Shown here in pieces: positions 14,316-56,694 of a stretch of DNA of 64,000 nt. The notes below the pieces were generated by a model, which was given only the letters and a program-made list of their open reading frames with translations, was not told the origin of the DNA and did not search any database. The position numbers and the translations under genes are program-made. Origin of the DNA: Lytechinus variegatus (taxonomy: Eukaryota > Echinodermata > Echinoidea > Temnopleuroida > Toxopneustidae); the NCBI RefSeq assembly GCF_018143015.1, contig NC_054748.1:3464580-3528579 (forward strand), in the 5' to 3' direction. The first letter of the stretch is position 1; each line of letters opens with the position of its first letter.

Positions 14316-15522
14316 TTAATCGCAACTCTTTGTGAGACCGGGTCCAGGAGTTTCAGCAGCACTTGCGTTGGATGGTAGGTGGTTCCCTCTGTCCTCGTTT
14401 TTAACCTCTTGTAGGTTGATTTTGTTGTCTTTGATCCCAGTCTTCTTTTTCGCCTTCATGCCATCGATATAAACGATGAAGGTATATAGGAACGGATTGA
14501 TTGATGAATTGATAGGGACGATGAGAATCACTGTCCAAGCATAGAGGGAAGGATCAAGGGTGACTGCTCCGGTCTGAGACAGGATACCCATGATGATGAC
14601 TGGCATCCAACAAGCAAGGTCTGTAGCAACGATCATCGCCATACGGACTGCCAGTTTAGTCTCTTGCCTATTGGGTTTGCTGCTGCGCACTTTGGCCGAA
14701 GAACGCCTGGACGTGATAAACATCGTTATGTAACATATCGACATGAAAGTGAAAGACACTAGATTGAAGCCAATGAAAATTATTATGGAAAACAACCATG
14801 GAGGCCTAGAACCGCTTTCATTGATTTTGAAATCTACTTGGTACTCAAAGAAGAAATGTCCAGTGATTTCCAAAAATCCAGTATCTTTCGCCTCAACATG
14901 CAGCGGTAGACCAAGGCAAACATCGGAAAGTCCGTATACGTCAGGTCTGTATGATGTAACGATCACCAATGTGATACTCAACATTACAGTGAAGGACCAC
15001 GCTGCAGCAACAAGAATTATAGACCCCTTGTGACCAAGTCTAAACTCTGGCCTGAATGGAAACATGATGCATATGAACCTATCAATGGTTATCAAGGTCA
15101 GGGTCAGAACCGATGCTTCACTGGATAAGAATCCTAGAAATCCAGCAAATCTACACATGTTGGAATCCCGCCACTGAAGGGCACTCAGGTAGAAGGTATT
15201 GCCATACTTAAGATCGGCAGACGTAATGATAATCATGTAAACTCCCATCAACATATCAGCCATCGCCAAGCTAGTTATCATGGTATTCTGGACTGTGTCT
15301 TTCATTTTCTTCTTATCTTTCTTGTGAGTTCTATCCCGAAGCCGAAGGAAGAGAACGGTGCCGTTGCCAGCTAAGGCCAATAAACCCATGACCCACCCTG
15401 CAATCCTCAAGGCCAAGTTTGGGTATAATCTGCTACAGGTGTCCAAGGGACTGGTCTGGGATGTCCTCGCGCAAGTGGTATTTTCCGCTAAAAGACAACA
15501 CAGGCGATTGTCAGAGGTAGAC
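14316..15522 (-). CDS. LRR-GPCR gene 1, hinge and seven-transmembrane exon
   Basis: Last exon of gene 1, encoding about 401 residues. The acceptor TTTTTGCATCCAG gives phase 2, matching the donor at 18047, so the upstream TTG-initiated start of the open frame is not the real start. Order: cysteine hinge DNRLCCLL...NTTCARTSQ...LDTCSRLYPN, then TM1 (GLLALAGNGTVLF), TM2 with LAMADMLMG, TM3 followed by TIDRFICIM in the DRY position, TM4, loop 2 with NESGS glycosylation site, TM5, TM6 (DLACWMPVIIMG) and TM7 with NSSINPFLY. These are rhodopsin-family LRR-receptor (LGR/relaxin-receptor-like) hallmarks; the protein should signal through G proteins at the plasma membrane. The tail ends PGPGLTKSCD, which appears to come from a MITE end. 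No frame disruption is seen. The exact LGR subtype and ligand are unknown. Confidence 0.93.
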
Positions 15523-15929
15523 CTGGATGCAAAAAGTAATTCAAATTGTCAAGACAAAAACATGTGAGTACTTAAATAAAATGGTAGGATTTTATCTTTT
15601 CTAAAGTCATTTACCTTTATGTCTGTTTGATAGGGCCATGACTCATGAACAAAATATGAAACCTAACACTTGAAAAACAAAATAATGATGAGAGGGAAAT
15701 GCTACTTCAACCGAATCCTTTTATCTTTTGTACTCGGTACGTTATGTCTTGTGTGCATTTTGAAGAAAATACCTACATTGCACGCCCTTTCTTCGATCGA
15801 GCACGCAGGGGCAGGCAAAATCATTCGGTGCACGAAGGTTCCTACGTGTTCTGCTAAACTCAACCAAATACAAAAATATATATTCGAATTCGTCACTGTG
15901 AAACCCCGTTCAAATTGATTAGAAACCAA
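15523..15929 (-). other. gene 1 intron, start
   Basis: Intron sequence next to the 7TM exon. No element or exon recognised. Confidence 0.6.
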
Positions 15930-17400
15930 CTGGTCACCAATGCGGCAAGGTGCCAACTAGTTGTCATGCAAAATCGAGCAATTGGGACCAGCAAGACGCA
16001 GATGGTTTACTATAACGATGCTTGAAACCTTGCAATTTTTTGCGTTGCGTGAATGCATGTCAGTAGCATGGCCAAATATCACCCCGGGGTACAGGTTAGG
16101 CTGGGCTTCATGAACATTCAGGCAGAATGCTGTCGGTATGTTTCCTCCGCATTTAAGATGTGCAGGCGGTCGTATCCGTGTTCGATGGCCGGGTATTCTC
16201 TAGCTGTGAACCAACTACTATCCGATGATGGGAATTATCATAAGTTTGATGAATACGTTGAAACGACGTTGATTAATGTGAGGCTAACAATGGACCTTGA
16301 TGGAGATCTCGATCTCGATCTCGAGCTAGGTTGAGAGGATAGTGATTACTGTTGGGGGCAACACTTAACCTTGGAAAAACTCTGCTCTTTAGTCAGCGCA
16401 TTCTGCTCACGTATCCGTCACCTGTACGCCTTTAGCAGAATGATGTTGTGGTTAGATGTGGTGGTACAGATGAATCGCACAAGGTGTCAGCAATAGTTGA
16501 TCCAGCTTCAGGACGAACCCATGATGCCAGACGTGGCCTTATAATGCTGCTGTAAGGGCTAGTCCAGCTGTTTGACCTTCTAAAACAATTCCTTGATCTA
16601 AAGCTCGCTATATCTTGACAGTAGTTCTACCTCGATCGGCAATATCTTCCTTGGTCTTCCGAAAGGAAATGATCGATCGCAGATCCAGGTGCGCGAGAGG
16701 AGTCTTTTCAAGAGCTTGAACGGAACGCAGAAATAGGTTTGGGTCATTTCTTGGATTGTTAGATTTTGATGTGGCGATGGCTGTTAGCACCTTGCGCCAG
16801 ATATTTCACTTCGACAAGCATAGGAGGCAGTTGGCATAGAAACCTCCAAGCCATTCCAGAGATGGATACCCGCGCCACTCTACGTACGTTCTCTGGTCCA
16901 TGAGCATATAGCAAGTACACACTAGCGGGAGAGATCAACGCGAAAGCCACAATGATGGACGTATAGTCCAACGTGTTCCTTGCTTGAACTCCTAAAGGTT
17001 TGATCCGTTTTCCAAGAGATATTCGACGATCTGATTGCCAGACACGATTCGCTTGGAGCTTCTTTCTTCGAGGCAATTGACTTTATTCCAGGTTTTTGTT
17101 TATATAAGGCAATTCCTTCCACGGCCTCTAACCAGATCTGCGTATCCTGTCTAGGCAGGCTGTAAGTTCAGAAGCGATAATTCCACATCGAGCATAGAGG
17201 AAATCGAAGGTGTTGCGTCTGCATGTAGGAGCTTGCTTGAGGGATGCTGACTTTTGAGGTTCAGGTCGGAGGCCATTTAACGGTTGGAGACTAGGTTGTC
17301 CACAAGATCTTAGGTAAGTCCAGTTTGCCTTGCGAAAATTCCACCTCTTCACTGCGCAGGCATAAAAGAAATGGTACAGACTGGGCTTAATTTTGTGATC
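15930..17400 (-). mobile_element. eroded LINE ORF2 fragment
   Basis: In shifting minus-strand frames it contains RRWNFRKANW-like linker residues (about 17300), a motif-A-like stretch with VWHHGFVLKL (about 16530), and HLNAEETYRQ with a downstream RT-tail-like segment (about 16140). Order and motifs fit jockey/BS-type LINE reverse transcriptases. Stops and frameshifts are frequent, so it is old. The plus-strand frame at 16053-16334 is a shadow. Family assignment is tentative. Confidence 0.5.
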
Positions 17401-18046
17401 AGAGGGATCGAGCCAGCTGTGTGACGATTTGCAGAAATAGCAAAGGATAATTTAATTGGACAGGGTCTTGAAGGTTAAAGAAATGCCAATTAAGTCATGG
17501 TTGGAGTTTGTATTCCAGCATCCGTAGTTAAGACTGCTTGTTACGTACTTGCTTGGGGTTAAACAGGAGATGCATGCCAGAAGCCCAGAGATTTCGCTTG
17601 TAGATTGCAGTTACGATTAAAGTCTGTGGAGCACTCGCTATCATTTCGCTCCAGGCTTTATGGTTAACCCAGATCTCAGTGTAGAGAACTTCACAATGTA
17701 AAAGAATTTTTTTTGTTTTCCATTCATGCATGTGATATATATCTTTGTAATCATTCTATAATTTATTTCTCTTTAAAGGAAATAAAAACCGGGGGCTTAT
17801 TTCGATTTCATGACCATATGCATTAAGTTTATCAATATTTTCTTTAAATGCACACAAAGACAAATTGCATTAGATGCGGTTTCTGTCAGTTAATTTCCAG
17901 TGAACCAAAAATGTTTGCTATGAACATGGTGAATACTTGCCTCTGATTCGGCTTGGCTTACACAAATTCACATGCAAGACGGATAGAACGTTACATTCAT
18001 TTGCTTTGATAGATGTAAATCACTATGAAAACAGAAGTTTACTTAC
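17401..18046 (-). other. gene 1 intron, no exon seen
   Basis: AT-rich intron between the eroded LINE and the last LRR exon. Confidence 0.6.
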
Positions 18047-18118
18047 ATTTTCTCTAAGGATACAAGTCCAGCAAGTGCATTCGAGTCTACAGCTCCCAAT
18101 TCAGTGCCAAGAAAGAAC
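18047..18118 (-). CDS. gene 1 LRR exon 9 (last repeat)
   Basis: A 72-nt exon between acceptor CTTTGTTAG and donor GTAAGT. It encodes FFLGTELGAVDSNALAGL plus the end of one leucine-rich repeat. Phase (1 nt in, 2 nt out) joins to the 7TM exon as M-STSDNRLCC. The paralogous exon is 53354-53425. Confidence 0.9.
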
Positions 18119-18335
18119 CTAACAAAGACAAAGTCAATGGCAGTGTAAGGACTTATATTTTAATGCGGCACTATATTTCTGGCGTTTAAATATTTCCCGC
18201 ACTAATATCATTATCATCACCACCAACATCACCTAGGTAGTCTTTCATAAGGCTTTTCGTACATATCGTAAAAAAGTACACACGGCTTTATGCACGAAGA
18301 TATGTTCTTATATAGAGTAGGGGCTGTGAGGTTAT

Positions 18336-18430
18336 GGATATAATATTAATAATACTAATAATGGTATATGCATAGCGCACGTGGCCACATTGCTTGGTGC
18401 TCAAGGCGCTCCTATGTGGCGCTCCAACAT
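18336..18430 (-). mobile_element. SINE 3' end fragment
   Basis: Reverse complement reads GGAGCGCCTTGAGCACCAAG followed by TGCGC and ATT repeats, the 3' tail shared with the SINE at 56330-56605. Head missing. Confidence 0.6.
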
Positions 18431-18439
18431 TATATATAC

Positions 18440-18665
18440 CGGTGTGTTGGCTCAGTTGGTAGAGCGTCAGTCTCACAAGCGAAAAGTCCGGAGTTCAAAC
18501 CCCGGCTGCGTCAGACCGAAAAGACATTAAAAGATAAAAGTGGTTGTTACCCTGTTTGACGTTCAACGATTGAAGGGATATAGCCTCGTCGATTTGGCGC
18601 TGCACAGCGGCTGCAGGGCCAAGGATCAATTGGGTAAAGCAAATTTCCGGAGTATTTAATTTCTT
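18440..18665 (+). mobile_element. tRNA-derived SINE
   Basis: The head has GTGTTGGCTCAGTTGGTAGAGCG (A-box region) and GGAGTTCAAACCCCGG (B-box region). The body continues at least to TGCAGGGCCAAGG. It lies between LRR exons of gene 1, in opposite orientation to the gene. The 3' limit is uncertain. Confidence 0.65.
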
Positions 18666-18798
18666 GACTATAATTTTCATCATTAAGCACACAAGGAATT
18701 ATCTTAATTCGTGCATATAGTCATGCGTATTATTTACGATAGTTACGTGAATGACGCGGATAACATGAAACAATAAAAAATACATTAACTTTGCTTAC

Positions 18799-18870
18799 AG
18801 ATACTGGAGATTCCCCAGGGATTCAAAGGCATGCCCTTCGATGACATGGATATGGTTGTCAGTTAAAAAC
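18799..18870 (-). CDS. gene 1 LRR exon 8
   Basis: A 72-nt exon (acceptor CTCTGTCCTCAG, donor GTAAGC) encoding FLTDNHIHVIEGHAFESL and the end of one LRR. Same phase as the other LRR exons. Paralogue at 54298-54369. Confidence 0.92.
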
Positions 18871-19190
18871 CTGAGGACAGAGGTCGAACAAAATAACAAG
18901 GAAAATGAAGAGCGCGTGGTTAGACAAACAAGAGCATTCTGTTAAGGGACCATTTGCCAAAGAGTGGTAAGAAATTGTCATTTTTGGTCAAAAATTTGCC
19001 AAAATGGCCAAAATTGCGTGAGTACAATCAATAAAAGTAACATTTTTAGAATCAGCACACAATTTTACCCCGGATAACCTTGTCAAACCTTCCCCATCAA
19101 AAATGTTGAATAAAGCCCCCCCATCTCCTAGACTAAATCAGAAACCTATTCAGTAAACCTCTACAGAGTCTTAAGCGCCAGTTAACTTAC

Positions 19191-19262
19191 AGATATTGAA
19201 GAGATCGTAGTCCTGTGAATACTCCACTACTCAAAACGGTGATGGAATTCGATGACAAATTT
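19191..19262 (-). CDS. gene 1 LRR exon 7
   Basis: A 72-nt exon (acceptor TTTGCCTAG, donor GTAAGT) encoding NLSSNSITVLSSGVFTGL and the end of one LRR. Paralogue at 55338-55409. Confidence 0.92.
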
Positions 19263-19529
19263 CTAGGCAAAAGAAGCATTTTTTTTCAATGAAGGCTTCA
19301 TTTATTGAAGAAAAATCGAGAAAATTGAAAAGGACAGTAAAGAGAAGATGATATAGAAAGCGTTCAAGCAAATTGCAAATGAGGGTTTGTAAATCTAATG
19401 AGATTGTGGTAACTTTGCCCTTCAATGGTAGTTTTAAAAAAAATGCCATCGCTTTGCCTGCCCCACTGCCTGATTTTGCTTGTCCGCACTGCAACATACC
19501 GTTTAGGCCAAAGATTGGTCTGTTCAGCC

Positions 19530-20083
19530 CCCGGGGGGCCACTTACATTGGCGAATGGATACCATGCGCGACCAAAAAAACACGTAAAAAGGATGTCTTT
19601 TTCACGATAGGGCACGTTACGTACGTAACGTGATAAGGGTGTCAAAAACACAAAATAATGAAAAAAGGGTATCTATTCCGCTAGGAAAATTACGTGTTTA
19701 GGGTCGAATTTGTGGGATGATAAAACAAAATTAAAATGTTTTATAAAGGATGTCCTTTTTGCCCCAACACTACGTGTTTAGAGTCCTATTTGCGCGAGGT
19801 GTAGAAGGTGGGTTCGTACTAAACCAAATAAGGTAAAGCCGACGACCGAAGGACCCGTAACAATAAAACATTCCTGTACTTGTTTAGGGGTCCATTTCAG
19901 GGAATATTTGCCAAGAGTATTGTTTTGTTTCCAATACTTGTAAAGGGTAAGGTTTCACACGCCAATACTTGTTAAGGGGTGCATTTTCAGAATATGGAAA
20001 TTACGTGTTTAGGGTGCTTTTCGAGACCCCATGGTCGCGCATGGTATCCACTCGTGAATGGAAGTGGCCCCCCCCCCCCCGGG
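19530..20083. mobile_element. G-run MITE
   Basis: Inverted ends read ATGGATACCATGCGCGACC on the left and GGTCGCGCATGGTATCCACT on the right, next to G/C runs. A perfect 8-bp duplication GTTCAGCC lies at 19522-19529 and 20084-20091. Its interior has further GATACCATGCGCGACC-like and CACGTGTTTAGGG words. Noncoding. Confidence 0.88.
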
Positions 20084-20263
20084 GTTCAGCCATCTTCGAA
20101 CCAGCCTCAATTCGTGAAGCTGTGGACGTTTTCACAGGCAAAGGACGAAAACTATCATCATTATCATCATCATCCTCACCATCGTCATCATTACCATAGT
20201 AACTATGAGGAACAGCCAATCAAAATGAAGGCTTTCCCTGAAGGTATCATTAGATCACCTATA

Positions 20264-21035
20264 TTTGAAGAGTTTAGTTGCAAAAGGGGTTAGGTCCACT
20301 TTGGACCATTCCAAGAAAAAAATAGTTTTTTTTATTCTCACTTACTGCAATAGTTTTATGAGAAACTAAATTGACTTAATGTACTACCCTATCATGTTAA
20401 ATTCAAATTGGGTACAAAAGAAATCTACCTGTCTTCATTTTTTTCTACATATTGTTCTAAAAATTATCATTGTGGACCTAATCCCTTTTGCAAGTAAACT
20501 GAAATGAGTCTATTTTGATTTAAAAAAGTGATTTTATTTGCCATTTTTATTTACGTTTTCATGTGAATTTCAAATTTTCTTTGTTTTCATCAGAGCGACT
20601 TGATTATGAACAATGGACCTAACCCCTTTTGACAAATGAGCTCTTCAGAAGAGTTTGTTTGCAAAATGGGTTAGGTTCACTCCAAGAAAATCATTTGTTT
20701 TTATTCTCCCATATTGCAATATTCTTATGGGAATTAAATTTTCATACCCTACCATGAGGATATAACATTGGATATAACAGAAATCTACCTGTCTTCATAT
20801 TTTTAAAAATATTATTTTCCCCAAAAAATTATGCGTGGACCTAACCCCTTTTGCAACTAAACTAAAATGGACCTAACCCCTTTAAAAAAAAGTGATTTTT
20901 ATTTGCCCTTTTAGATCACCTTTTAAGGGGAATTTCAACTTTTCTTTGGTATCATCTTATAGAGCTACTAAAAATAGACAAAAATATCAAATATGATGAA
21001 AAATGGACCTAACCCCCTCTGCAAGTGAGCTCTTC
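20264..21035. repeat. two direct copies of a ~380-bp repeat bounded by GGGGTTAGGTCCA
   Basis: Each unit opens with GAAGAGTTT(A/G)(G/T)TTGCAAAA and GGGTTAGGT(C/T)CACT and closes with the inverted GGACCTAACCCC followed by GAGCTCTTCA. Units are about 20268-20645 and 20646-21030. Additional GGACCTAACCCCTTTTGCAA copies lie inside (20473, 20838, 20871). No coding content. Confidence 0.75.
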
Positions 21036-21585
21036 ATTTGCTTTCATGTAACTGGGCCAAGCTGGTCTAAAGGTTAGCAACTATATTTGCGACATTGGCC
21101 GGAAAGTTGAAATCAAAAACTGAACAAAGTCAATAACTTACATCAAAGCGGCATCAAAGTCATTTAGGATTTATATCGTCATTTTTCCCCCCAACAAAAC
21201 GCGAATAGTTTTGAAACAGAACTCCAATGTTACCTCTTTTGATAAGAAATTACTAGAACGGGTTGACTTTAGTTTAAAAAAAATGTTTAACAAATCTTTG
21301 CGAACTGGGTTATGCAACCCATCTGTGCCAGTGAATCATTTTTCAAGGAAGGATCAATAAGAGCAAAGTAAATGGAGTTGCTTGCTTCAAATGGCTATGG
21401 AAAAGATGTTTCAGATCAAAGTTGTAAACGTTTAACCCACTTTATAGATATGTTCCGAAATATTTACAATGATAACATTAAATTGGTAAATAGTACCTGA
21501 TATCATTACATACAAAGATCGACGTGGTTGATACTATTTTTACAATCTCCAAGTATAGTGGAGACGTAATTGAGTGAGAACTTAC
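21036..21585 (-). other. gene 1 intron, no exon seen
   Basis: Ordinary intron sequence. No element recognised. Confidence 0.5.
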
Positions 21586-21657
21586 AATATTTTAAGGTTT
21601 TCAAGATCAGAAAATGCCCCAACATCTAGATGGCTGATTTGATTTTCATACAGATAC
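21586..21657 (-). CDS. gene 1 LRR exon 6
   Basis: A 72-nt exon (acceptor CTCTTTCAG, donor GTAAGT) encoding YLYENQISHLDVGAFSDL and the end of one LRR. Paralogue at 56041-56112. Confidence 0.92.
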
Positions 21658-22094
21658 CTGAAAGAGAAGAAATACATTCAATATCTATTTGTATCGGATG
21701 AACATAGACGCAGGGAACGATTCAGAATGATTTCTATTGAAATAAATTTGTCAACAAGCAGTTGGTCTGATTTTCTCATGTAGATAATTTTAATCAGAAT
21801 GGGCTATTCTATATTGATTTGCTCTAATTCCCAAATCGGCCTACACTACAAGTGAATCTAATCTAATAGCAGATCCGGATTATTAGTGCATTTGTCAATT
21901 GAAAACCTGGTCTATACGGTACTTTATATAAGCTAAGTGGTGTTATAGGCCTACCAAATACGACATTGACAGGCCTATTCAATAGTGTGGCTAAAATAGC
22001 CAAAGTGGAAGGTAAAAATGAGCTAAAATTGTAATCAGACCAAACGATTAGCAGAAGAGGTTAAGAAGGAAAGTGGCAATTTACCATCTGTGGG

Positions 22095-22357
22095 GGGGGG
22101 GGTGTCTCTCCGAGAACGGCGACATTGTCCGTCAGCTAGGGCCTCACGTGTCATACCGAGGTTTTACCTGACTGATTAGAAAGCACGAATGCCTGTGAAA
22201 AAGCAACCAGGGGACCGACGGCTTAAGGTCCTCTCCGAGGGACCTGGTAATTAGGATAAATGCCTTACCAAAGGGTACTAGCGCACCACTTGGGAATCGA
22301 ACCCTGGTCACCGGAATCTGAAACCCCCGCTCTACCGACTGAGCTATCGCGCCTCCC
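22095..22357 (-). mobile_element. tRNA-derived SINE
   Basis: On the minus strand it starts GGCGCGATAGCTCAGTCGG, then AGGGTTCGATTCCC (B box), followed by a roughly 185-bp body. The head matches the truncated element at 38547-38632. Stem pairing is poor and the body continues, so it is not a tRNA gene. Confidence 0.8.
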
Positions 22358-22729: not shown

Positions 22730-22801
22730 AAGAATTCTAATTCCTTCAGTCCGTCGAAAACCCCCTTGTCGATGCCTTGGATCCTATTGAGGTGTAGACC
22801 T
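22730..22801 (-). CDS. gene 1 LRR exon 5
   Basis: A 72-nt exon (acceptor CTTGAAAAACAG, donor GTAAGT) encoding GLHLNRIQGIDKGVFDGL and the end of one LRR. Paralogue at 60683-60754. Confidence 0.92.
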
Positions 22802-26053: not shown

Positions 26054-26125
26054 AGTTCTCGAAGATTGCTCAATCCAGTAAACACGCCAGGTTGCAAGTA
26101 TTCTAAGTGGTTCCCAAAGAGTTCC
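26054..26125 (-). CDS. gene 1 LRR exon 4
   Basis: A 72-nt exon (acceptor ATTATTAAG, donor GTAAGT) encoding ELFGNHLEYLQPGVFTGL and the end of one LRR. Paralogue at 62077-62148. Confidence 0.92.
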
Positions 26126-26576: not shown

Positions 26577-26648
26577 AAGTAAAGAAGACTGTTCAAATGT
26601 GTAAATGTGCCTTTTTCAATCGAAGATAGCTCGCTCCATTGAATATTC
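26577..26648 (-). CDS. gene 1 LRR exon 3
   Basis: A 72-nt exon (acceptor TCGGCTAG, donor GTAAGT) encoding NIQWSELSSIEKGTFTHL and the end of one LRR. Paralogue at 63182-63253. Confidence 0.9.
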
Positions 26649-27388: not shown

Positions 27389-27460
27389 ATATGTTGCAAT
27401 TTGTGTAAACCAGTGAAAGCTGTATTCCTGATCTTCTGTATCTTGTTCGAACCTAAGATT
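27389..27460 (-). CDS. gene 1 LRR exon 2
   Basis: A 72-nt exon using acceptor TTTTTATATAG and donor GTAAGT. It encodes ILGSNKIQKIRNTAFTGL and the end of one LRR. A closer AG 8 nt downstream (ATCTTAG) would break the repeat and the phase, so the upstream acceptor was chosen. Confidence 0.88.
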
Positions 27461-28925
27461 CTATATAAAAAGAACAAGCTGTGTAATTTATAAAAAAAAT
27501 CACTTCAATCTGGCTTCCTTGAAAGGTGGGTGACGTCGTGTCGGGTCTAGTGGCGTAGCTAGGATATCTTCCTGGGGGTACTTGGTGTCATTACCTTTTA
27601 ATGGGGGGGGGGCATTTTTCTGTAGCTGTATGTGTCACAGGGGCGGATCCACTTTCGCCAAAAGGGGAAGGGCCCAACTTTTTTTAAATCCATATTTTCC
27701 CCGATCGGTCGCTCAAAGTTGACCTATTATTATAATAATTTTTTTGGGAGGGGGAGGGGTAGGGGTAGTCCTCTCAGTAATTTCTTTGCTTTATTCTTTT
27801 AAAACAACATAAATATGAAATAATATTTCAATCACTATATGTATTTAAAAAGATAATGTCAGGTCGAAGTGCGAGCTATTTCATTTTCATTTTGTTTTGG
27901 AAGTTTTATGTATTTTGTCCTGAAAATTTAACATTCTGGGTATTGTTTGTGATCCTGAACAAAATGCATATGGAACTCAGATAATTACCGCGAACGCCAA
28001 GCGCGAACAGACAATTATAATAAACGTTCTGGCCTGATCTAAAAGGGACCTGGTAAGGACTGTTTGCAGATATCCGTGAAGACGACACATAGCTTTAACA
28101 ATTAAATAATGCGAAAATTTTTGACATTCCGACCTTAAAAAAGAGGTAATTCTCAACAATTTTATGTAATTATGAAAGGGATAGGTATGTAACTAAACAA
28201 TTGATGTGAACGCTAAGCGCGAGCGGAAGAAAATTCAGATTTTAGATCTAAAAACTGGACACTTCATTTATGTTTTTAAACCATGAATAGGATGGGTACC
28301 GGATGGGTAATTGGGTATCTACCTACATCAATAATGCATCCGTGAAGTGCGAGCAGAAAATTATTGATATTCTGGTCTGAAACTGGATAATTTCAGCACG
28401 TTTTAAACAAAAAACAAAGAACAAACTGCCGTTCTCAATAAACATGCATGCGCGTGTTTTAGAGTTAGACCTATAATCTGAATACATTTTTTATCATGAA
28501 GATCAATAGTGCGAGCTCGAACCGCGAGCTGAAAACATTTGATATTCCGATCTGAAATAGTGTTGATTTGTGCACTATTTCAAGCACTGTAGCAAAATTC
28601 TGAAGTGGATGTAGATCACACTTAATAGATAGAAATAGCTGAAAGTGTTGATATTCCCGACCTTTCGTTGGAGAACGTGAATGCTTATTTGCGACGGTTA
28701 TTAATTTTGGAAGAGACTTTGGGCCCTCGTCATGGTCGTAACACTCTGTTCTGCAATGCAAATTGTGTGACATGAGATTTTTTTTTCGTTTCGCATCTGG
28801 AACGGAAGCATTCATTCTGCGTTTCGTGTGTAAAATTCTGGTTGCGACTATGGTAACAGCGATATATCCGATTCAGGACGACTTTCCAAAGCCCCATTTG
28901 GTTTCTCCCTGAGCTCGAAAGGCCG

Positions 28926-29181
28926 CCCGGGGGGCCCACTTCCATTGAAGAGTGGATACCAGGCGCGACCACGCGTAAAAAGGGAAAGAGTGTGCAAGTA
29001 CGGTACGTATAGGCCTATGTAACATTATAAGGGTGTCAATACTTGTAGGGTTTCACAAGCTAAATACTTGTTAAGAGATGCATTTTCATATTCTGGAAAA
29101 GCCTTGCTTCCCTTGTTTAGGGTGCTTTTCAAAACCGCATGGTCGTGCCTGGTATCCACTCATCAATCGAAGTGGTCCCCC
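28926..29181. mobile_element. internally deleted G-run MITE
   Basis: Left end CCCGGGGGGCCCACTTCCATT, then AGTGGATACCAGGCGCGACC. Right end TGGTCGTGCCTGGTATCCAC near the CCCCCGGG boundary. About half the length of 19530-20083. No clear target duplication. Confidence 0.7.
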
Positions 29182-29611
29182 GGGAATTCGAATCTTATCC
29201 CCATTTCTGGGGAAAGTAAAGCATAATGCCCATTACATTGTGTGCTAGAGGCATGTCGTTTGTGTAGGAGTAAACAAAAGAAAAAAAAAAATCAACGCAT
29301 GCGAAATGCTTTCGGCTGGAGAGGTGATTTGACCCATGGAATCAATTGTCAGAGATCCACCAATAATCCACATTAAATGCAATATCGATTCGATGGACTG
29401 TAATGATCTATATCTAAGCCTTGATTCAGTAACTTTTTCCTCATTCAATATGTACTCGATTTTTTTTAAAAGAAGAAAACACTTTCTTATCCATGTCATA
29501 ATCTATTTAGGTCCTGCACTTCGAATATCTCCAGTTTTTAGTCGTAATGTACATGCATGGCGCGGGTGTCTCGGGAAAGAATTTTGCACACGAAAAACAG
29601 ATCTGTAGGGC

Positions 29612-29755
29612 CTGTAACCCCCCCCCCCCGTAACACAAAGCTTAGCATTGATTGTAGAGCAGTTTTATACGTGTGATTCTATTGACTATAATGTACAATC
29701 AATCTTAAAAATTAAGTGTATGATTAAGCGTTAAGCTTTGTGTTAGGGGACCCTA
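29612..29755. mobile_element. short palindromic MITE
   Basis: Inverted ends GTAACACAAAGCTTAGC and, inward from the right, CTAACACAAAGCTTAACGC enclose about 90 bp. No coding capacity. Confidence 0.65.
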
Positions 29756-30349
29756 ATATAAGCGTCCGTGAGGATTGCGAAAGGTGGCAATTAAGACCAT
29801 AATACGGACATTTTAAAGAAAAAAAATTAATGAATGCTCGATGTCCGAGCTGAAATATGTTTTGTATATACATGTATTGACTTGATATTTTAAGCTCCAT
29901 ATAAACCATGTTGAGCAAGACATGAACCACATCGAACAGGCAATGCAAGCGCCAGCGAAAATTTTATATAGTGACATGAAAACTTTTCCCCTCACCTTAT
30001 TTTATTCACTCGTGTTCCTCCTCTTATTTTCCTCTTCGTTTTCCCTTCTCTCTTTCCCCCTTTTTTCTTTCTTTTTCCTTCTTTTTGCTCCGCCAATTTT
30101 TTCAGGGGTCGGAGACCTGGGGGGGGGGAACGTTCTCCCCCGGCACCCCCGTAGCTACGCCCCTGGCCGCGTCGCACGCAATAAAACTTGGATGTTGTCT
30201 CGTAGAACTGAGTTGTCGCGTGGCGCCAACCTTTCTGACTTTGTGAGACCCTTTCTTCCTTTTTCGCGACCTGACATCTTGATGAGTGAGATTCATCGAA
30301 TTGCGTATTTTCACAGAGATTTTATTTTTACACAGCCATATGAAAGAGG

Positions 30350-30640
30350 CTATCATTTGGATCAATTCATTACCACTTGATCTAAAGTCATCTGCCGTTC
30401 GGTCTTCTAAGCAATTCATCTAATCGGTACCACTTCATCCACCGCGAATTCTTCTAAGACCCCTTTGGTCTAATACACATGTTGTCTAAACCCATTTGGT
30501 CTAAACGACACTTGACAAACTTCAACTCGTCTAATGATCACATGGTTAAACATTAGATGATTTTCCCCATTTTGTAATCATTTAATATGCTTAATAAACC
30601 CTCGATGGCTTAATCAATTTAGTCAAACTCATAGCCATGA
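30350..30640. repeat. degenerate TTTGGTCTAA(A/T) tandem repeat
   Basis: Repeated GTCTAAT/TTTGGTCTAAAC words with variable spacers. A similar block is at 47215-47400. Noncoding. Confidence 0.55.
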
Positions 30641-30753
30641 ATATCGCGATGTTAACATTGTATGTATGGATATTACAAACGGTAGAAGAGCAAAATATAT
30701 ATATATAAAACCTCTTTTACAATATCATAAAAACATGACTAGTTTAAACTCAC

Positions 30754-30825
30754 AGTGTCAGAAGGTTCGGAAATCCAGTGAAGGTGTTTGCTTCGATGGA
30801 GACTAAACTCGTATTATAAAGAAAT
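30754..30825 (-). CDS. gene 1 LRR exon 1
   Basis: A 72-nt exon (acceptor TTTTTTTCTTTAG, donor GTGAGT) encoding FLYNTSLVSIEANTFTGF and the end of one LRR. First of nine regular 72-nt LRR exons in gene 1. Its paralogue, if present, lies beyond the window. Confidence 0.9.
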
Positions 30826-30979
30826 CTAAAGAAAAAAAAGGAGAGCAGAAAGGGGATATCAATTTAACTCTCCCGGATGAAATCAACATTATAAAACAAA
30901 TATCTCATCATGCGTTTATATTTTATAGCAATCGTAATCGTTTCCAGTAAAACATGCAAAACGTCGCTTAAATAGATTT

Positions 30980-31290
30980 TAAAGGTAAAGAACGCGAAGT
31001 GATGAAAATATCATCAAAATCGAATTTTGAATTCATTAATATTTTGTGAAAACATTTATATGCACATCGTTATGAATATTCATTAGGTGGGCTGATGATG
31101 TGAAATCCCGACTTTCCTTTTTATTATGTTATTACAATTTACATGTAATCATTATTGGTTAATTTTTCATGCATGTGTAAATCATGTGTCTCCATTGTAA
31201 TGAAATAAGTTGCGGCAATAAACAACTAACATGACTTATGCACTTAATCAGTAATGTAGAAGTTCTTGGTGGAAAAAAATGTTTGATAAA
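30980..31290. mobile_element. TTAA-family MITE remnant
   Basis: Begins TTTTAAAGGTAAAGAACGCG and carries GGGCTGATGATGTGAAATC. Divergent from 37572-38181. Confidence 0.4.
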
Positions 31291-31399
31291 CCTAGTTTCA
31301 TATAATAAAATACAAAAGAACAAATGGGGATATATATATCATCAGCCTACCTAATGAATATTTATGAATATTTATTGATTCTAAGGTTTCCCAACACAT

Positions 31400-31768
31400 C
31401 ACCGAGCCCCGTCTCATAAAATGTTACAATTATTCCAATCAAGCACAACTACATGTATGGCAAGCCAGTTGCATGTACGTCGTTATCTAAAATGCATGTT
31501 AGTTTAAAATATATCCAACTGTTTCTGTACACATCCATGGGTCCCGTCTTACAAAGAGTTACGATTAATCCAATGAAGCACAACTATGGGAAGACAGCTC
31601 CGTAGTTATCTAAATTTTATGTTTGATCAAAATATTTTCTAGATAATTTATCGTGCATTCTTATTTCATTAATCGTTTTCTTGAAAATCGACGGTACTTC
31701 TCCAAAGTCTCTGTTTACAAAGGGCATTTGGCAAAAAAATTGAAGGATTTTCATATAGCTGAGGTTGA
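31400..31768. mobile_element. fragments of the GTCTTACAAAGAGTTACGATT MITE family
   Basis: CCCGTCTCATAAAATGTTAC at 31409 and GTCCCGTCTTACAAAGAGTT at 31544 each start a partial copy related to 31769-32050. Confidence 0.55.
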
Positions 31769-32050
31769 TCAGGGGCCCGTCTTACAAAGAATTGCGATGT
31801 ATCCAATCAATCGCAACTATGGAAAGCCAGCAAAGTCAACATATAAAATGCACGTTGGTTAAAAAAGAATTCTAGTTATGAAATGTATATCCATAAATTC
31901 ATTGATTTCTTGACAACTTGATGTGTTCTCCTTTGTTTACAAAGGACATTTTGCAAATTTCCTGTGGAAAAAAATTATGACATTGATGGATTTCCATAGA
32001 GTTACGATTGATTGGGTCAATCGTAACTCTTTGTAAGACGGGGCCCTGAT
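31769..32050. mobile_element. MITE with GGGCCCGTCTTACAAAGA inverted ends
   Basis: Left end GATCAGGGGCCCGTCTTAC; right end, read inward, GATCAGGGCCCCGTCTTAC. The element lies 6 bp beyond the GTAAGT donor of the 222-nt exon (32062-32283). The same end sequence forms the last codons and 3' UTR start of gene 1 at 14316-14346. Confidence 0.85.
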
Positions 32051-32061
32051 CATCAACTTAC

Positions 32062-32283
32062 AAGACTGTATCCTGTCTCTGTCGGGCTAATATTTGCTCT
32101 GGATGCAGTTCTAAATTGTAACGCTGAATGTACGCGAAATAGCCGATTAGTTTCATTAGAGCTTCTTCTATTTTCAGGTTGGCTTCCACCGTTGAACGAC
32201 TGAGCCCCTTCATTCTCCATCTCAATTTTTCTACCGATTTCAACGGAGATAGAGTGGTCCTTGTTCGTTCAGTTGTCAAATCC
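32062..32283 (-). CDS. gene 1 non-LRR exon (74-codon insert before the repeats)
   Basis: Acceptor CTGATAAAG and donor GTAAGT give 222 nt with 1 nt in and 2 nt out. This is exactly the phase needed between the cysteine exon 33108-33162 and LRR exon 1. It encodes DLTTERTRTTLSPLKSVEKL, then a basic, helix-like stretch (SRSTVEANLKIEEALMKLIG, AYIQRYNLELHPEQ). The first part resembles an irregular capping repeat; the rest has no domain I recognise. The acceptor lacks a strong pyrimidine tract, so the exon could be alternative. Confidence 0.65.
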
Positions 32284-33107
32284 CTTTATCAGGCGAAACA
32301 TAGAAAATAAAGACAAACATGAAATGTCGATGTGAGATCACTCATTATAAGTCGAAAGAATATTATTGTTTTCCCCTATCAATTACTTCTACGTCCGAAA
32401 CGCTTCTATGACTTCTCTGTAGCAGGGGCGCCGGAGGGGGGTGGGGCCATGGGGCAGAGGGGGCACTTGCTTCCAACAGAGGTTCGGGGCAAAGCGAGAT
32501 TTTGTCCCAAACGCGTCCATTAAAAAGTAAAAAAAGATAATTTAAATACAAAAAAATGCGAAGAAACCTTTCTTGTCTCACAATTTTTCAATTTCATATT
32601 GAAAAAAAAGGGAGACATTTTTACCTCCGTAGGTGCGCTTACACTTCTAAGCATGGCAAAGCCTCGCGTCCTTCAACGAGCGCAGCTTAACCAATGCCCC
32701 CGTAAAATATATCTTTGATTAACCCTTCCTTTCCTTGTAAGTTTTCTAGCAATACTGTTAAGGATATTTTCCGTTCCCCCCAAAAAAAAATAAAAAAATA
32801 ATAAAATAAAAAAATTCTACGTTCAACCTTTCGATGAATACAATTCAGACTTAAACCGAATGAAAAAGTGAAAGTAAATTCATGCTGGCCATGTCAGTAG
32901 CTTCGGATATTTTGAGTGTGTAAAACCGTAAATTAACAATAATAAGAATAGGGTACATTCTGAAGTGCTTTATTTTCGTAAAATAAACATTTCTTTTTTT
33001 CTATATGATTTTAGTCCGTTCGCAATGGAGTTTGAATTTTTGTTCTGAATATAAACGGAATATTTATAATAAAAAAGAATTGAATGGTCTCGATTGAGCT
33101 AACTTAC
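32284..33107 (-). other. gene 1 intron
   Basis: A hAT-like end CAGGGGCGCCGGAGG lies near 32424. Otherwise low-complexity AT with no exon. Confidence 0.5.
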
Positions 33108-33162
33108 ATGCATCGCATGGATGACGGAACGCCGGCAATCGGAGTTGGTACACATAACACCC
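33108..33162 (-). CDS. gene 1 cysteine exon, second half of LRR N-cap
   Basis: A 55-nt exon (acceptor CATCCAATTACAG, donor GTAAGT), 2 nt in and 2 nt out, encoding VLCVPTPIAGVPSSMRC. The C...VP...C pattern fits an LRRNT cap. It converts the phase-1 ectodomain exons to the phase-2 LRR exons. Confidence 0.85.
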
Positions 33163-33719
33163 CTGTAATTGGATGATAAAAGTACACTAATCTATGGTAA
33201 GTAAATTGTCAATTAGGTCACCAGTGGGGTACATTTTGGGAGGGAGGGGGGCAAGAGGGGAAAAACAACCGCCCCCCAAAAAACACACAAAAATAAGGGG
33301 ACAGAGAAAAGGGAGAGAAAAGAAGGAGGAACATGGAGGAAAATAGATATATATATATATATATACATTTTCACAATTTGTTGAAACACATTATTTTTTT
33401 ATTTGAATTTATTCATTTTTTCTGCTCGCGCTCCCATTTCTCCCAAATGACATCCTGAATATATAGAAATAATAAAGACAAAACAATAACCCCCCCCAAA
33501 AAAAACATCCCACAGTGTTTCATTTAGATTAGTTCTCCCAAATCATATTCCACCTACTTTCTCTGAGTTGCCGATTGGGGTTAAAAGTGGAAATAATTTG
33601 ATTTTTACCCCCCCCCCCTCCCTTCCCATCGATTGCCGATACTGGATCAACAGTGACCCCCAGTAATGAACTTCTGGGGTGAAGTACATATGTTTGTGAT
33701 AAAATTGAATTCTCTACAT
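33163..33719 (-). other. gene 1 intron
   Basis: A G-rich stretch (33230-33340) and a short TA repeat (33345-33364). No exon seen. Confidence 0.5.
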
Positions 33720-33896
33720 CAGGGGCGAATCAAAGATTTTTTAAGGGGGGGGGCACATTTTTCCGAGGAAAAATGGACAACCCCCCAAAAAAAAAAAAAA
33801 TTAATTTTTATATTACGAATTTTTCAATTTTGATTCTAATGGGGGGGGGGGGTGGGGCATGGGCCGGCTGTTCCCCCCCCTCTGGATCCGCTAGTG
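33720..33896. mobile_element. 177-bp hAT-like MITE
   Basis: Ends CAGGGGCGAATC and, inward, CACTAGCGGATCC. Flanks CTCTACAT (33712-33719) and ATCTACAT (33897-33904) match at 7 of 8 positions. Internal G and C runs could pair. Confidence 0.75.
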
Positions 33897-34849
33897 ATCT
33901 ACATATACTTACCTTGATACCACCCTGTAACACCACATACATCCACAGCTGGTATGCAATTTTGGGCTGATTGTGGATTAACAATGAAAGAATAATAATG
34001 ACATTTATCATGCATGTCATGACGATGGAGACGATGATGAAGAAGGAGGAGGAGGAGAAGTAGAAGAAGACAAAAAAGAAGAGGAAGAAGATGATGATAG
34101 TAATAATGATGAAAATAATAATCATATTTCTTATAATACTATACTAAAGAAAAATAGAAGACTCAGAGGCATAGGAATAACACAAACAATAACAAACGTA
34201 ACAATTATGATCTACCAATCCGAAAAGTAGCCCTTCAACATGTTCAAGGAATAAATTTAAGATTGCCTTCCATTTCCATCCATAAGAAACAAACAAACAA
34301 ACAGATAACGAGATCTCGAATCTTTTTATGTCTACATCATTTTTGAGAGAAGAATAGATGGTAATATATCATGTATATTGGAACCATAATCATGTCACCT
34401 GATCATCTCTCCCTTGGGCTGTAGACATGTCAAGATCCATGATTTTGCCATCTTATCATCATTTTTCTTCAATAGATTTATTTCAGACCTAACAAGATGA
34501 CTGTTTTTTAACATCTGGGTGGCAGTTTTATTAAAAGCTTCCTTAGGAAACTAAGCTTAGTGATTTTGGTATGAATATTTATTTGAATAATTTTACCTCC
34601 TCCTTAGCGCGTTCTCATTTTTTTTAAAAGGCACTTCAAGTTTCATAATAACAACAATGTTAAGGAAAATAGAGGTCATAAGGGTTCTTGGAAGGAAATA
34701 CATTTTCTTTTGATTTTTTCCTAAGTCTCATGACACAGAAAATGCTCCATGATTTGTCATGTTTGTTGAAAGGGAGCATTCGTAATATCATTACGCGGAA
34801 ATATATTAATTACATGGATTTATTTTCAAATAATGAAGTGAATTCTTAC
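33897..34849 (-). other. gene 1 intron with GAA/GGA microsatellite
   Basis: 34025-34130 is purine-rich GAAGAAGGAGGAGG-type repeat. The remainder holds no recognised feature. Confidence 0.55.
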
Positions 34850-34918
34850 CATTGTTGGAATCCAGGAAGCAATGTCCTGCCACACACGTTTCTTCTTCCG
34901 TGAGAGCTGATGCTGAAT
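34850..34918 (-). CDS. gene 1 cysteine exon, first half of LRR N-cap
   Basis: A 69-nt phase 1-1 exon (acceptor ATGTTTTTCCAG, donor GTAAGA) encoding SASALTEEETCVAGHCFLDS and NN. With the next exon it forms C-x4-C-x9-C-x12-C, an LRRNT-like cysteine cluster. Confidence 0.82.
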
Positions 34919-35470
34919 CTGGAAAAACATACATTGTTCATTAACCAAAGCATTATTTCGATAAAACTCTATACAAGCTTCAGACAAAAAATGTAAATAA
35001 AGGAGAAGTATACCCTGCCTGACGTAAATAACCTTTAATAAAAGAAGGGGGAAAATAGAGAACAATATTGGTGAATTGATCATGTTTCCAGTTCCCATAA
35101 TTTACAACTCTGACATGTTATTACCTAAGTACGTATGTAGGCCTTCGTACCGTCTCTCCAAAATGTTACAAGAAACCCATACAAATCCGATTTAAAACAA
35201 TACTGATATAGATTTGATAATATTTATTGCAAAAATAAAGAAGATAAAGAAAGATAAAAAGCATACACTGAAATAACACAAGCCAACAAGAGAGAAAAAG
35301 TTGATAAATCGATTGTTATATTTATCATTGTATAATTTTCTATGTCATCAATAGATCATGATATGAATTAATTTATTATTGTCTGCGCTATGCTTTGAAT
35401 TACGTAAATAAAATCATCGATAAGGATAGGAGGGGGGGGGGGGGGAGAAACATGGGTCTTGTCATAGCTA

Positions 35471-35637
35471 CCAGGGAGGTGTTTCATGAAAGGACTTGTC
35501 GGACATTATTATCCGACAAATCCCATTTTATCCGACAATTACCATAGGAACAGTGCCTCTCAGCCAATCAAAATCATGGAAAGATGTCAGATCTGACAAC
35601 TTGTCGGATGAAAATACTGATAGAACACCCCCCCCCT
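35471..35637. mobile_element. MITE with GTGTTTCATGAAAGGACTTG inverted end
   Basis: Left end AGGTGTTTCATGAAAGGACT and then TTGTCGGA; right end GACAACTTGTCGGATGAAAA ... GAACACCC. Internal CCGACAA repeats. It ends 14 bp from the ShKT exon donor. Confidence 0.65.
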
Positions 35638-35651
35638 GATGTTCCTCTCAC

Positions 35652-35777
35652 CATTTATGTTGAGTAGGGTACACTGGTGGCAGCTAGTCTGACAAACGGG
35701 CAGGACCTCTGAAGGGTAAGACTCGCAAGCTCCCTGCCTGGCCCATTCTTCACAGCTAGGATTGATATCCCGACAAT
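35652..35777 (-). CDS. gene 1 ShKT-domain exon
   Basis: A 126-nt phase 1-1 exon (acceptor TTCAAAACCCAG, donor GTGAGA). It encodes CRDINPSCEEWARQGACESY, then six further-spaced residues and C-x3-C-x2-C. The order CxD...C..WA..G.C......C...C..C is the six-cysteine ShKT (SXC) pattern. This fold is common in secreted animal proteins as an extracellular module. It lies between the SRCR exon and the LRR cap with matching phases, so it is probably part of the receptor ectodomain. Confidence 0.87.
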
Positions 35778-36227
35778 CTGGGTTTTGAAAGAAGATTATG
35801 TTGATACTGACAATAATTCCAATTTGCTTAAGCAGCTCATCACTGCAAACTGCGTCCTTATTTGCATTTTTGAAGAAGACAGAAAAGTAAAAAAAAAAAA
35901 AATAGAAAGACAGGAAAATTTCTGGTAGTCACATATAAGTCGCTGAGGAAATGTTTTATTGTTCGCCACTGGTTAGTATTTTCTATGTTGCTGCTATCTT
36001 CATTGTCTGATGAACGACAACAATATAGTCATCATAATCATCTTCACCAGCACCACCGCCACCATCGCAATCAACATCACAGTCATTATCGCCATCATAC
36101 AACAACAGAAAGAAAAATCTCAACATTATGCATAATTGTTATTTAAATTACAACCACTATTAAAGAAAATGCTTCCATTGTCTTTTCATATAACAGCGTA
36201 AGGGTCATAAATTGAATTTCCATTATA
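35778..36227 (-). other. gene 1 intron
   Basis: Contains a CATCA-type simple stretch near 36030-36100. No exon seen. Confidence 0.5.
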
Positions 36228-36459
36228 CACAGCAAAAAATGTGGTGTTAACCGGTGTACACAGAGGACCACACCAGATATTTTACACCAGTGTTAAATTG
36301 GTGGTTTAGTTTTACACCTATAGGTGTTATTACAACACCTATGGTTGTTACATTTACACTCTTTGGTGTTATGTTCAATTTCTAGGGTGTAACACCTCAA
36401 GGTGTGGTCCTCCTTTCACACCATTTGGTGTCAGTTTTAACACCACAGTTTTTACAATG
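36228..36459. mobile_element. 232-bp TA-flanked palindromic MITE beside a splice donor
   Basis: Ends CACAGCAAAAAATGTGGTG and, inward, CATTGTAAAAACTGTGGTG, flanked by TA at 36226-36227 and 36460-36461. This is typical of Tc1/mariner-related MITEs. The interior is rich in GGTGTTA/TAACACC. Its end lies 12 nt into the intron after the SRCR exon. A copy of identical length is at 63314-63545. Confidence 0.88.
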
Positions 36460-36470
36460 TAGGATCCTAC

Positions 36471-36785
36471 CTGAGCATCTTACACCAGCCTCGTTGAAAA
36501 CTGAGTTGCATCCCATTGTCTGGATCTTAAGTTCTCTCCTGGGACATTCCGAGATGTCAGTTTCGTTCCCCTTGCACTGGAGATCAATCGCGTGTATATT
36601 CAAAGAACTCGGTCCAAACTCCGACAATGGTGTGGTACCAAGTGCCCCGGTTAGGCCAAGACTTCGGCAGATGACATGGGCGTCGTTGATGTCAAAGCCG
36701 TTGTCGCAGAGAGTACCCCAAGTTCCATTGATGCGAACCTCCACTCTGCCCTCTTCCGGTGTCAGTCCATTCATCAACCTCACAT
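36471..36785 (-). CDS. gene 1 SRCR-domain exon
   Basis: A 315-nt phase 1-1 exon (acceptor ACGCTCTCAAG, donor GTAGGA) encoding one whole scavenger receptor cysteine-rich domain: VRLMNG, GRVEVRINGTWGTLCDNGFD, HVICRSLGLTGA, LQCKGNETDISECP, and GVRCSG. Six-cysteine group A-type spacing is visible, plus an N-glycosylation site (NGT). The open frame runs past the donor into a MITE, but that read-through is not coding. It is the most N-terminal module that can be joined with confidence; the signal-peptide exon was not found. Confidence 0.92.
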
Positions 36786-56605: not shown

Positions 56606-56606
56606 A

Positions 56607-56672: not shown

Positions 56673-56694
56673 ATTCTTTTTTCATTGGCCAACG

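What the first reader, a model, noticed from the sequence alone, without database searches (positions are those of the whole stretch)
14316..36785. LRR-GPCR with an SRCR plus ShKT ectodomain
On one strand, in order and with consistent phases, are an SRCR exon, a six-cysteine ShKT exon, two LRR-cap exons, a 222-nt exon, nine 72-nt LRR exons and a 7TM exon. Relaxin-type receptors and GRL101 usually carry LDLa modules instead. I know of no named LRR-GPCR with SRCR and ShKT. The domains and phases are seen directly; that they form one protein is inferred from phase and spacing.
Basis: partly seen in the sequence, partly recalled or inferred. Interest (0 to 1): 0.85.

Follow-up and report, generated by a model that had tools for sequence, protein, structure and literature searches.

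The report
Sea urchin SRCR-ShKT leucine-rich-repeat GPCR
A sea urchin gene appears to join a scavenger-receptor (immune-type) domain and a small six-cysteine domain to a relaxin-receptor-like G-protein-coupled receptor, and the same exon order recurs in a duplicated gene family, so the odd protein is very probably real; what it senses is unknown.

Summary
A likely first exon lies upstream, 44561-44492. The genome is probably a sea urchin (bindin). No transcripts were available, but 13 of 13 close 7TM copies (12 open, 1 broken) each have one of the 13 best SRCR rows and 13 best ShKT rows of the genome upstream, same strand, same order. These are tandem and allele-like copies on C9 plus one on C2, so not 13 independent events. 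The C2 gene matches exon by exon, including the 222-nt exon, which has no Pfam match. Exons are under purifying selection. The 7TM is closest to RXFP1 among solved structures, but LDLa was not found, and the introns fit neither RXFP/LGR3 nor LGR4 genes. Expansion of RXFP1/2-like genes in sea urchin is in print (PMC3310001); this ectodomain I did not meet in ten searches. New variant of a known kind; ligand and signalling are inference.

The parts
44492..44561 (-). likely first coding exon (signal-peptide-like MADVLYRIISVWIFTRVIYCQEA), ends in phase 1; an in-frame ATG also at 44585
   Evidence: paralog exon MADVLYRLITIWVFTRIAFCQES in L037 and MAHLLTGFNLMVAVCILTRIISGRET in the C2 gene; in-frame stops upstream. 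Against: not seen in the flank of L038, the counterpart of L037; no signal-peptide predictor was run; hydrophobicity alone is not specific (109 of 382 ATG frames reach 1.5, this exon 1.75)
36471..36785 (-). SRCR domain exon, 315 nt, phase 1/1, six cysteines
   Evidence: Pfam PF00530 6.4e-25 for the exon
35652..35777 (-). ShKT (ShK-like) six-cysteine exon, 126 nt, phase 1/1
   Evidence: Pfam PF01549 4.9e-6 for the exon
34850..34918 (-). LRR N-cap exon 1, 69 nt, phase 1/1
   Evidence: C2 copy 79% identical
33108..33162 (-). LRR N-cap exon 2, 55 nt, phase 1 in, 2 out
   Evidence: C2 copy 53% identical
32062..32283 (-). 222-nt exon, phase 2/2, no Pfam match
   Evidence: 222 nt in 3 of 3 further C9 paralogs read, 213 nt in the C2 gene
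30754..30825 (-). LRR exon 1, 72 nt, phase 2/2
27389..27460 (-). LRR exon 2, 72 nt
26577..26648 (-). LRR exon 3, 72 nt
26054..26125 (-). LRR exon 4, 72 nt
22730..22801 (-). LRR exon 5, 72 nt
21586..21657 (-). LRR exon 6, 72 nt
19191..19262 (-). LRR exon 7, 72 nt
18799..18870 (-). LRR exon 8, 72 nt
18047..18118 (-). LRR exon 9, 72 nt
14316..15522 (-). hinge plus seven-transmembrane exon to stop, 1207 nt, no intron
   Evidence: Pfam 7tm_1 5.3e-27; best PDB match relaxin receptor 1, 7.3e-34
51110..63252 (-). tandem paralog (partly in window): 7TM 52237-51110 (84%) and LRR exons 9 to 3; its ShKT and SRCR exons lie beyond the window

Best explanation
One 16-exon sea urchin gene (44561-14316, minus strand) encodes a receptor of about 900 residues: signal peptide, SRCR, ShKT, LRR N-cap, a 74-residue domain of unknown kind, nine LRRs, a short hinge and a class A seven-helix domain of LGR type. 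It belongs to a tandem family of SRCR-ShKT-LGRs. Shown by sequence: exon order, phases, co-occurrence in the copies, purifying selection on the exon classes tested, and a class A 7TM resembling RXFP1. Inferred: the LRR horseshoe with SRCR binds an extracellular ligand; ligand binding moves the hinge and the N-terminal modules against the helices; the helices activate a G protein. SRCR-ShKT stands where LDLa stands in relaxin receptors and may do LDLa's job of ligand-dependent activator. The family most likely serves recognition of microbial or environmental cues rather than one hormone, because it is a tandem array and SRCR genes are among the sea urchin's expanded immune recognition genes.
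For: Spliced frame open, 15 of 15 named exons with AG/GT and in phase. First-exon candidate. 13 of 13 close 7TM copies have SRCR then ShKT upstream on the same strand, with no other close 7TM copy between; N-cap exon 1 in 12 of 13. The 13 best SRCR rows have E at most 6.6e-32, the next SRCR row 1.2e-22 (150 scored of 1112 candidates); the 13 best ShKT rows have E at most 9.5e-9, the best row outside the clusters 7.3e-5 (42 rows). ShKT keeps a phase 1 GT donor in 10 of 11 loci read, the eleventh being cut by the end of its locus. C2 gene collinear exon by exon. dN/dS of the window gene against non-allelic copies: 7TM 0.12-0.20, SRCR 0.18-0.37, ShKT 0.04-0.21, LRR3-9 0.21 and 0.30, 222-nt exon 0.36-0.63. 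PDB, 7TM exon: RXFP1 120.6 bits, TSHR 103.7, 8w1z 96.4, LHCGR 95.4, FSHR 84.5, LGR4 39.9. Sea urchin SRCR expansion and coelomocyte expression: PMC3308324 passages, PMC7308585 passages.
Against: No transcript, protein or ligand evidence. Copies are related by tandem duplication and C9 1.70-1.95 Mb may be the other haplotype of 3.48-3.73 Mb, so 13 is not 13 independent tests; the C9 to C2 contrast is the cleanest. In the window, signal-like ATG frames with a phase 1 donor lie between ShKT and cap exon 1 (for example 35098-35014) and between the caps (34020-33909); the C2 gene has none in those two introns. The 222-nt exon was found in 9 of 13 loci (8 by genome search, C2 locally) and not in the loci of 7TM 3675978, 3731900, 1747329 and 1704704. 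The ShK score is only slightly above cut-off. The first exon has an arginine inside the hydrophobic stretch and was seen in 3 genes only. dS above 1 is near saturation. The recognition role rests on analogy; purifying selection dominates and no test for diversifying sites was run.
Confidence: 0.71

Rival explanations
1. Two neighbouring genes that duplicate as a block: a short secreted SRCR-ShKT protein, and an LRR-GPCR that starts after it; or one gene with a main isoform that starts after ShKT.
For: No transcript joins them. Introns of 0.7-1.7 kb lie from SRCR to cap exon 2 in the window. Signal-like ATG frames with a phase 1 donor exist between ShKT and cap exon 1 and between the caps in the window. 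RXFP1 has a natural splice form that gives its LDLa-linker part as a soluble protein (PMC4561518 passages).
Against: The C2 gene has no such frame in the same two introns, so those of the window are not conserved; hydrophobic ATG frames are common by chance (109 of 382). ShKT is followed by a phase 1 GT donor, matching the cap exon, in 10 of 11 loci read. A conserved ATG exon lies before SRCR in three genes. Order kept in 13 of 13 loci.
Confidence: 0.09
2. A relaxin-type (type C) LGR with an unusual N-terminal decoration, still a receptor for a relaxin- or insulin-like peptide.
For: 7TM closest to RXFP1 among solved structures; short hinge; nine LRRs against ten in RXFP1/2 (PMC4561518 passages); 27 rxfp1/2-like sequences reported from a sea urchin database (PMC3310001 passages).
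Against: LDLa, held to distinguish and activate type C, was not found. The 7TM exon has none of the introns of RXFP/LGR3 or LGR4 genes (against PMC11863921 section 6). A tandem array is not what I expect of a single hormone receptor (inference). Ligand peptides were not searched here.
Confidence: 0.2
3. A chemosensory receptor family of surface organs, comparable with other expanded sea urchin rhodopsin-type GPCRs, not an immune receptor.
For: Sea urchin rhodopsin-type GPCR expansions are expressed in tube feet and pedicellariae (PMC7042368 and PMC10855541 passages); a GRL101-type LGR is differentially expressed in starfish sensory organs (PMC6267866 passages).
Against: Nothing here tells tissue. 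SRCR is better known as a protein- and microbe-binding domain (PMC7308585 passages). Not excluded.
Confidence: 0.3
4. Assembly or pseudogene artefact: scattered exons brought together by misassembly.
For: Some copies are broken (7TM at C9:3675978 with stops, ShKT in two pieces at C9:3621305), and C9 holds a mirrored region.
Against: The window gene is open through its exons; its C9 1.9 Mb counterpart differs by 5 of 1203 bases in the 7TM exon; the C2 gene has the same order.
Confidence: 0.02

Closest known systems
RXFP1/RXFP2, LGR3, LGR4 (type C1 LGR)
   Same: LRR horseshoe of 24-residue repeats, short hinge, 7TM best match RXFP1, small cysteine-rich module at the N-terminus
   Different: SRCR plus ShKT plus a 74-residue domain where LDLa would be; 7TM in one exon; tandem family
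GRL101 (type C2 LGR)
   Same: LRR class A receptor with N-terminal cysteine-rich modules
   Different: GRL101 is described with many LDLa repeats (PMC8286064 passages and section 15)
Sea urchin rxfp1/2-like expansion (27 sequences, PMC3310001)
   Same: may include orthologs of this 7TM family (not tested); the expansion is in print
   Different: what I saw (section 10 and passages) gives no ectodomain; the words LDLa, scavenger and ectodomain occur 0 times in the main text
Amphioxus Adhesion GPCRs with SRCR (PMC2246102)
   Same: SRCR on a GPCR
   Different: Adhesion class; its authors in 2008 thought SRCR unique to amphioxus among GPCRs (passages). Here it is rhodopsin class with LRRs
Placozoan C-type-lectin GPCRs (PMC6321704)
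   Same: pattern-recognition domain coupled to a GPCR
   Different: secretin/adhesion family, C-type lectin instead of SRCR, and one glycoprotein hormone receptor with a lectin domain mentioned (passages)

Membership tests
LGR (LRR-containing class A GPCR) | LRR ectodomain with N-cap fused to a rhodopsin-type 7TM | tested here: met
   Pfam LRR_8 and 7tm_1 on the spliced product; one frame across exons; cap recognised by eye, no Pfam cap model listed; splicing not shown
Type C LGR | N-terminal LDLa module | tested here: not met
   none in Pfam scan, none by motif on minus strand 46000-14000 or in three paralog regions (the only unplanned motif match in the window was one loose sushi-like pattern), none of the 150 best LDLa matches (of 981 candidates) in the C9/C2 clusters, ten other 7TM loci as positive control
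Type C LGR | short hinge (about 30 residues in RXFP1/2, PMC4561518) | tested here: met
   about 38 residues between LRR9 and TM1 in the spliced product; TM1 border by eye
Type C LGR | 7TM groups with type C in a tree with types A and B | tested here: inconclusive
   best PDB score RXFP1, then TSHR; no tree with outside references was built; the tree holds 29 own-genome rows only
RXFP/LGR3 ortholog | phase 1 introns in TM2 and TM5 (PMC11863921 section 6) | tested here: not met
   7TM is one exon of 1207 nt
LGR4-type (C1) | phase 0 intron after TM7 (PMC11863921 section 6) | tested here: not met
   frame runs from TM7 to the stop in the same exon
Adhesion GPCR | GPS/GAIN and 7tm_2 | tested here: not met
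   Pfam lists 7tm_1 and no GPS or 7tm_2 at E 0.1
SRCR superfamily | SRCR domain over the curated score | tested here: met
   82.1 bits against 26.1
ShK/ShKT domain family | six-cysteine ShK model over the curated score | tested here: met
   21.5 bits whole protein, 27.4 exon alone, cut-off 20.9
surreal-GPCR groups of S. purpuratus | phylogenetic placement with those groups | not tested
   their sequences are not held here

The most novel reading that the evidence does not exclude
Sea urchins carry a class of innate pattern-recognition receptors that signal by G proteins: SRCR-ShKT (or several SRCR) domains have replaced the LDLa activator of relaxin-type LGRs, turning a hormone receptor into a tandemly expanding recognition family that bridges SRCR immunity and class A GPCR signalling. 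The C2:72302056 gene with four SRCR exons upstream would be a second architecture of the same class.
Probability: 0.35. Interest if true: 0.82.

Novelty: new variant of a known kind. Interest (0 to 1): 0.62.

Why it matters
If transcribed as predicted, it suggests that the LDLa activator module of relaxin-type receptors can be replaced by unrelated cysteine-rich modules, which would make the open question of how LDLa activates RXFP1 testable by comparison. It also links the sea urchin's large SRCR recognition repertoire to G-protein signalling. A 2021 survey reported one ortholog each of LGR3, LGR4 and GRL101 in the ambulacrarians studied, despite extensive attempts to find more LGRs (PMC8286064 section 15); a 2012 paper retrieved 27 rxfp1/2-like sequences from a sea urchin database (PMC3310001 passages). 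This gene family may help to reconcile the two.

Tried and rejected
Two-gene model: considered, weakened by co-occurrence and phases, not excluded. LDLa overlooked: motif scan and LDLa list negative in the clusters. The 222-nt exon as a chance frame: rejected, it recurs with the same phases in four further genes. I thought it looked like half a SEA domain; Pfam listed nothing at E 0.1 and PDB two rows at E 1.1 and 4.8, so I make no claim. A sigma-70 promoter scan near the first exon is meaningless for an animal and is not used. Rfam on the window: 0 matches at gathering threshold. Species: bindin points to a sea urchin (that starfish have bindin too is recalled); that 870 Mb fits Lytechinus variegatus is recalled, not tested (only looks the name up). 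First exon: SRCR flanks of 1.5 kb were scanned in 13 loci; a conserved ATG exon was seen in L037 and L046 only, not in L038, the counterpart of L037. Literature: ten searches; I saw the listings of the rows shown, passages of 14 papers (two of them with whole sections: PMC8286064 section 15, PMC11863921 section 6; and PMC3310001 section 10), and met no SRCR-LRR-7TM or SRCR-ShKT receptor of rhodopsin class. Not every listed paper was opened, and the library lacks most subscription journals, among them 2006 sea urchin genome companion papers that I recall as relevant (GPCR, immune repertoire, adhesome), so absence from print is not shown.


Full report
What is there. The window lies in G000:C9:3464580-3528579 of an 870-Mb genome with a bindin gene (E 4.0e-66), so probably a sea urchin. 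Each border has an AG acceptor and a GT donor (the last ends in the stop), and the phases match: SRCR, ShKT and N-cap exon 1 are 1/1, N-cap exon 2 goes from 1 to 2, the 222-nt exon and nine 72-nt LRR exons are 2/2, and the 7TM exon starts in phase 2 and runs to the stop. The join gives 880 residues without a stop. Pfam finds SRCR, ShK, LRR and 7tm_1 in it; ShK only just passes in the whole protein.

The start. A paralog locus (L037) and the C2 gene have a short ATG exon with a phase 1 donor upstream of SRCR. The window has a counterpart at 44561-44492, MADVLYRIISVWIFTRVIYCQEA against MADVLYRLITIWVFTRIAFCQES. Stops lie in frame upstream; the same exon was not seen in the flank of L038, the counterpart of L037. 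Hydrophobicity alone would not pick it out: 109 of 382 ATG frames on the minus strand reach 1.5 on the scale used, this exon 1.75. With it the protein has 903 residues.

Is it one protein? No RNA was available, so I used duplication. The 7TM exon has 12 open close copies including itself (77-100% identical) and one broken copy. There are 13 close SRCR rows and 13 close ShKT rows, clearly separated from the other rows; one ShKT copy, C9:3621305, is in pieces. A script paired them: 13 of 13 7TM copies have SRCR then ShKT upstream, same strand, 18-40 kb from SRCR to 7TM, with no other close 7TM copy between; N-cap exon 1 was found in 12 of 13 and the 222-nt exon in 8 of 13 by genome search. A ninth (213 nt) was found in the C2 gene locally. 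Four loci (7TM 3675978, 3731900, 1747329, 1704704) showed none. The C2 gene, 77% identical in the 7TM, matches the window gene in order through SRCR, ShKT, both caps, the 222-nt exon, LRR1 to LRR9 and 7TM. Splice borders: SRCR acceptors and donors are in phase 1 in the 12 SRCR loci read, with the acceptor of L039 and L040 three bases earlier; ShKT has a phase 1 GT donor in 10 of 11 loci read, the eleventh being cut by its locus end. Because C9 seems to hold the cluster twice (below), the copies are not independent; the C9 to C2 comparison is the cleanest.

A result against. Between ShKT and cap exon 1, and between the caps, the window has hydrophobic ATG frames with a phase 1 donor (for example 35098-35014 and 34020-33909). 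The C2 gene has none in the same two introns. They look like chance, but a receptor isoform without SRCR-ShKT is not excluded.

Constraint. Pairwise dN/dS of the window gene against non-allelic copies is 0.12-0.20 for 7TM (10 copies), 0.18-0.37 for SRCR (10), 0.04-0.21 for ShKT (9), 0.36-0.63 for the 222-nt exon (4), and 0.30 and 0.21 for LRR3-9 against the neighbour and C2. In one search one SRCR locus (L044, partial) was left out, and ShKT was read in 10 loci. The caps and LRR1-2 were not tested. Several dS values exceed 1 and are rough. The pattern says that the tested exons code and are kept.

What kind of receptor. The 7TM part scores best against RXFP1 (120.6 bits), then TSHR (103.7), and far less against LGR4 (39.9) among solved structures. 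The aligned segments show the N of the TM5 segment shared with RXFP1, CWMP in TM6 (CWIP in RXFP1) and NPFLY in TM7; the meaning of these motifs is recalled. The hinge is short, about 38 residues, as in RXFP1/2 (about 30, PMC4561518 passages). But LDLa, the mark of type C, was not found, and the introns that mark RXFP/LGR3 and LGR4 genes (PMC11863921 section 6) are absent. So it is an LGR by anatomy; membership in type C is not met on LDLa and untested by tree.

Family context. In a tree of 29 own-genome 7TM exons, the 12 SRCR-ShKT copies form one clade (100/100), and six C2 genes of 49-53% identity lie in a neighbouring group. One of these, C2:72302056, has four SRCR exons, an N-cap motif and LRRs upstream, without ShKT by my scans; its splicing was not worked out. 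Single SRCR rows lie upstream of C2:72228817 and C2:72339343 as well. C4:43281468 showed only LRRs in about 19 kb upstream. Ten more distant 7TM loci have LDLa about 9-19 kb upstream on the same strand. Thus this genome seems to have LDLa, SRCR, and SRCR-ShKT versions of LRR-GPCRs.

How it most likely works. Ectodomain outside, helices in the membrane and G-protein coupling inside follow from the anatomy and from what is known of class A receptors. That SRCR with the LRR horseshoe binds the ligand, and that SRCR-ShKT plays the activating role of LDLa, is inference; for RXFP1 and RXFP2 the LDLa is held to be the true agonist (PMC4561518 conclusion passage). A recognition role fits a tandem array and sea urchin SRCR biology (218 gene models, 1905 domains, coelomocyte expression; PMC3308324 passages), but chemosensory or peptide-hormone roles are not excluded.

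Prior work. Retrieval of 27 RXFP1/2-like sequences from a sea urchin database is in print (PMC3310001 section 10 and passages). A later survey found single orthologs only (PMC8286064 section 15). SRCR on a GPCR is known for amphioxus Adhesion receptors (PMC2246102 passages). I met no description of SRCR or ShKT on a rhodopsin-class LRR receptor in ten searches of open papers; not all listed papers were opened and most subscription papers were out of reach.

Verdict. The finding is real and, as far as genome sequence can tell, correctly read. It is a new domain architecture, to my knowledge, in a known superfamily, in a tandem family, with unknown ligand.

Noticed in passing
window 5038-8485 against 11434-14448: About 6-kb tandem duplication (91-98% in most blocks, 82% in one) just downstream of the gene; it carries a second copy of the last 54 codons of the receptor at 8482-8321 (94%), and a 15-residue TM7 scrap lies at 10121-10077.
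   Followed up: partly
G000:C9 1.51-1.95 Mb against 3.48-3.88 Mb: Mirrored, inverted copies of the LGR and SRCR arrays; four paired 7TM exons compared have dS 0.004-0.05 and the window pair 0.007. Either both haplotypes in one scaffold or a real inverted duplication.
   Followed up: partly
L066 1455-6887 (C2:72283000 onward): Four SRCR exons upstream of the cap motif and LRRs of an LRR-GPCR gene, a possible second architecture.
   Followed up: partly
G000 C9:15222165, C16:8745225, C16:26662466, C16:28958870, C18:10528837, C10:26990029, C10:2944011, C1:74719607, C4:6413052, C4:7084043: 7TM matches with an LDLa match upstream on the same strand: more LDLa LGR loci than the single orthologs of the 2021 survey, some perhaps haplotype pairs.
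   Followed up: no
L068 2199-5303 (C4:43262500 onward): Row of very similar 72-nt LRR exons (NSITVICERTFTGLSSL) upstream of a 7TM gene, suggesting recent LRR exon multiplication.
   Followed up: no
window 40705-40932 and 43241-43506: Two tandem arrays of a 42-nt unit in the long first intron, related to each other in inverted orientation by eye.
   Followed up: no
G000:C9:3621305-3621438 and 3675978-3677044: Broken copies: a ShKT exon in two pieces with a stop, whose counterpart at 1793276 is open, and a 7TM exon with stops. Observed only.
   Followed up: no
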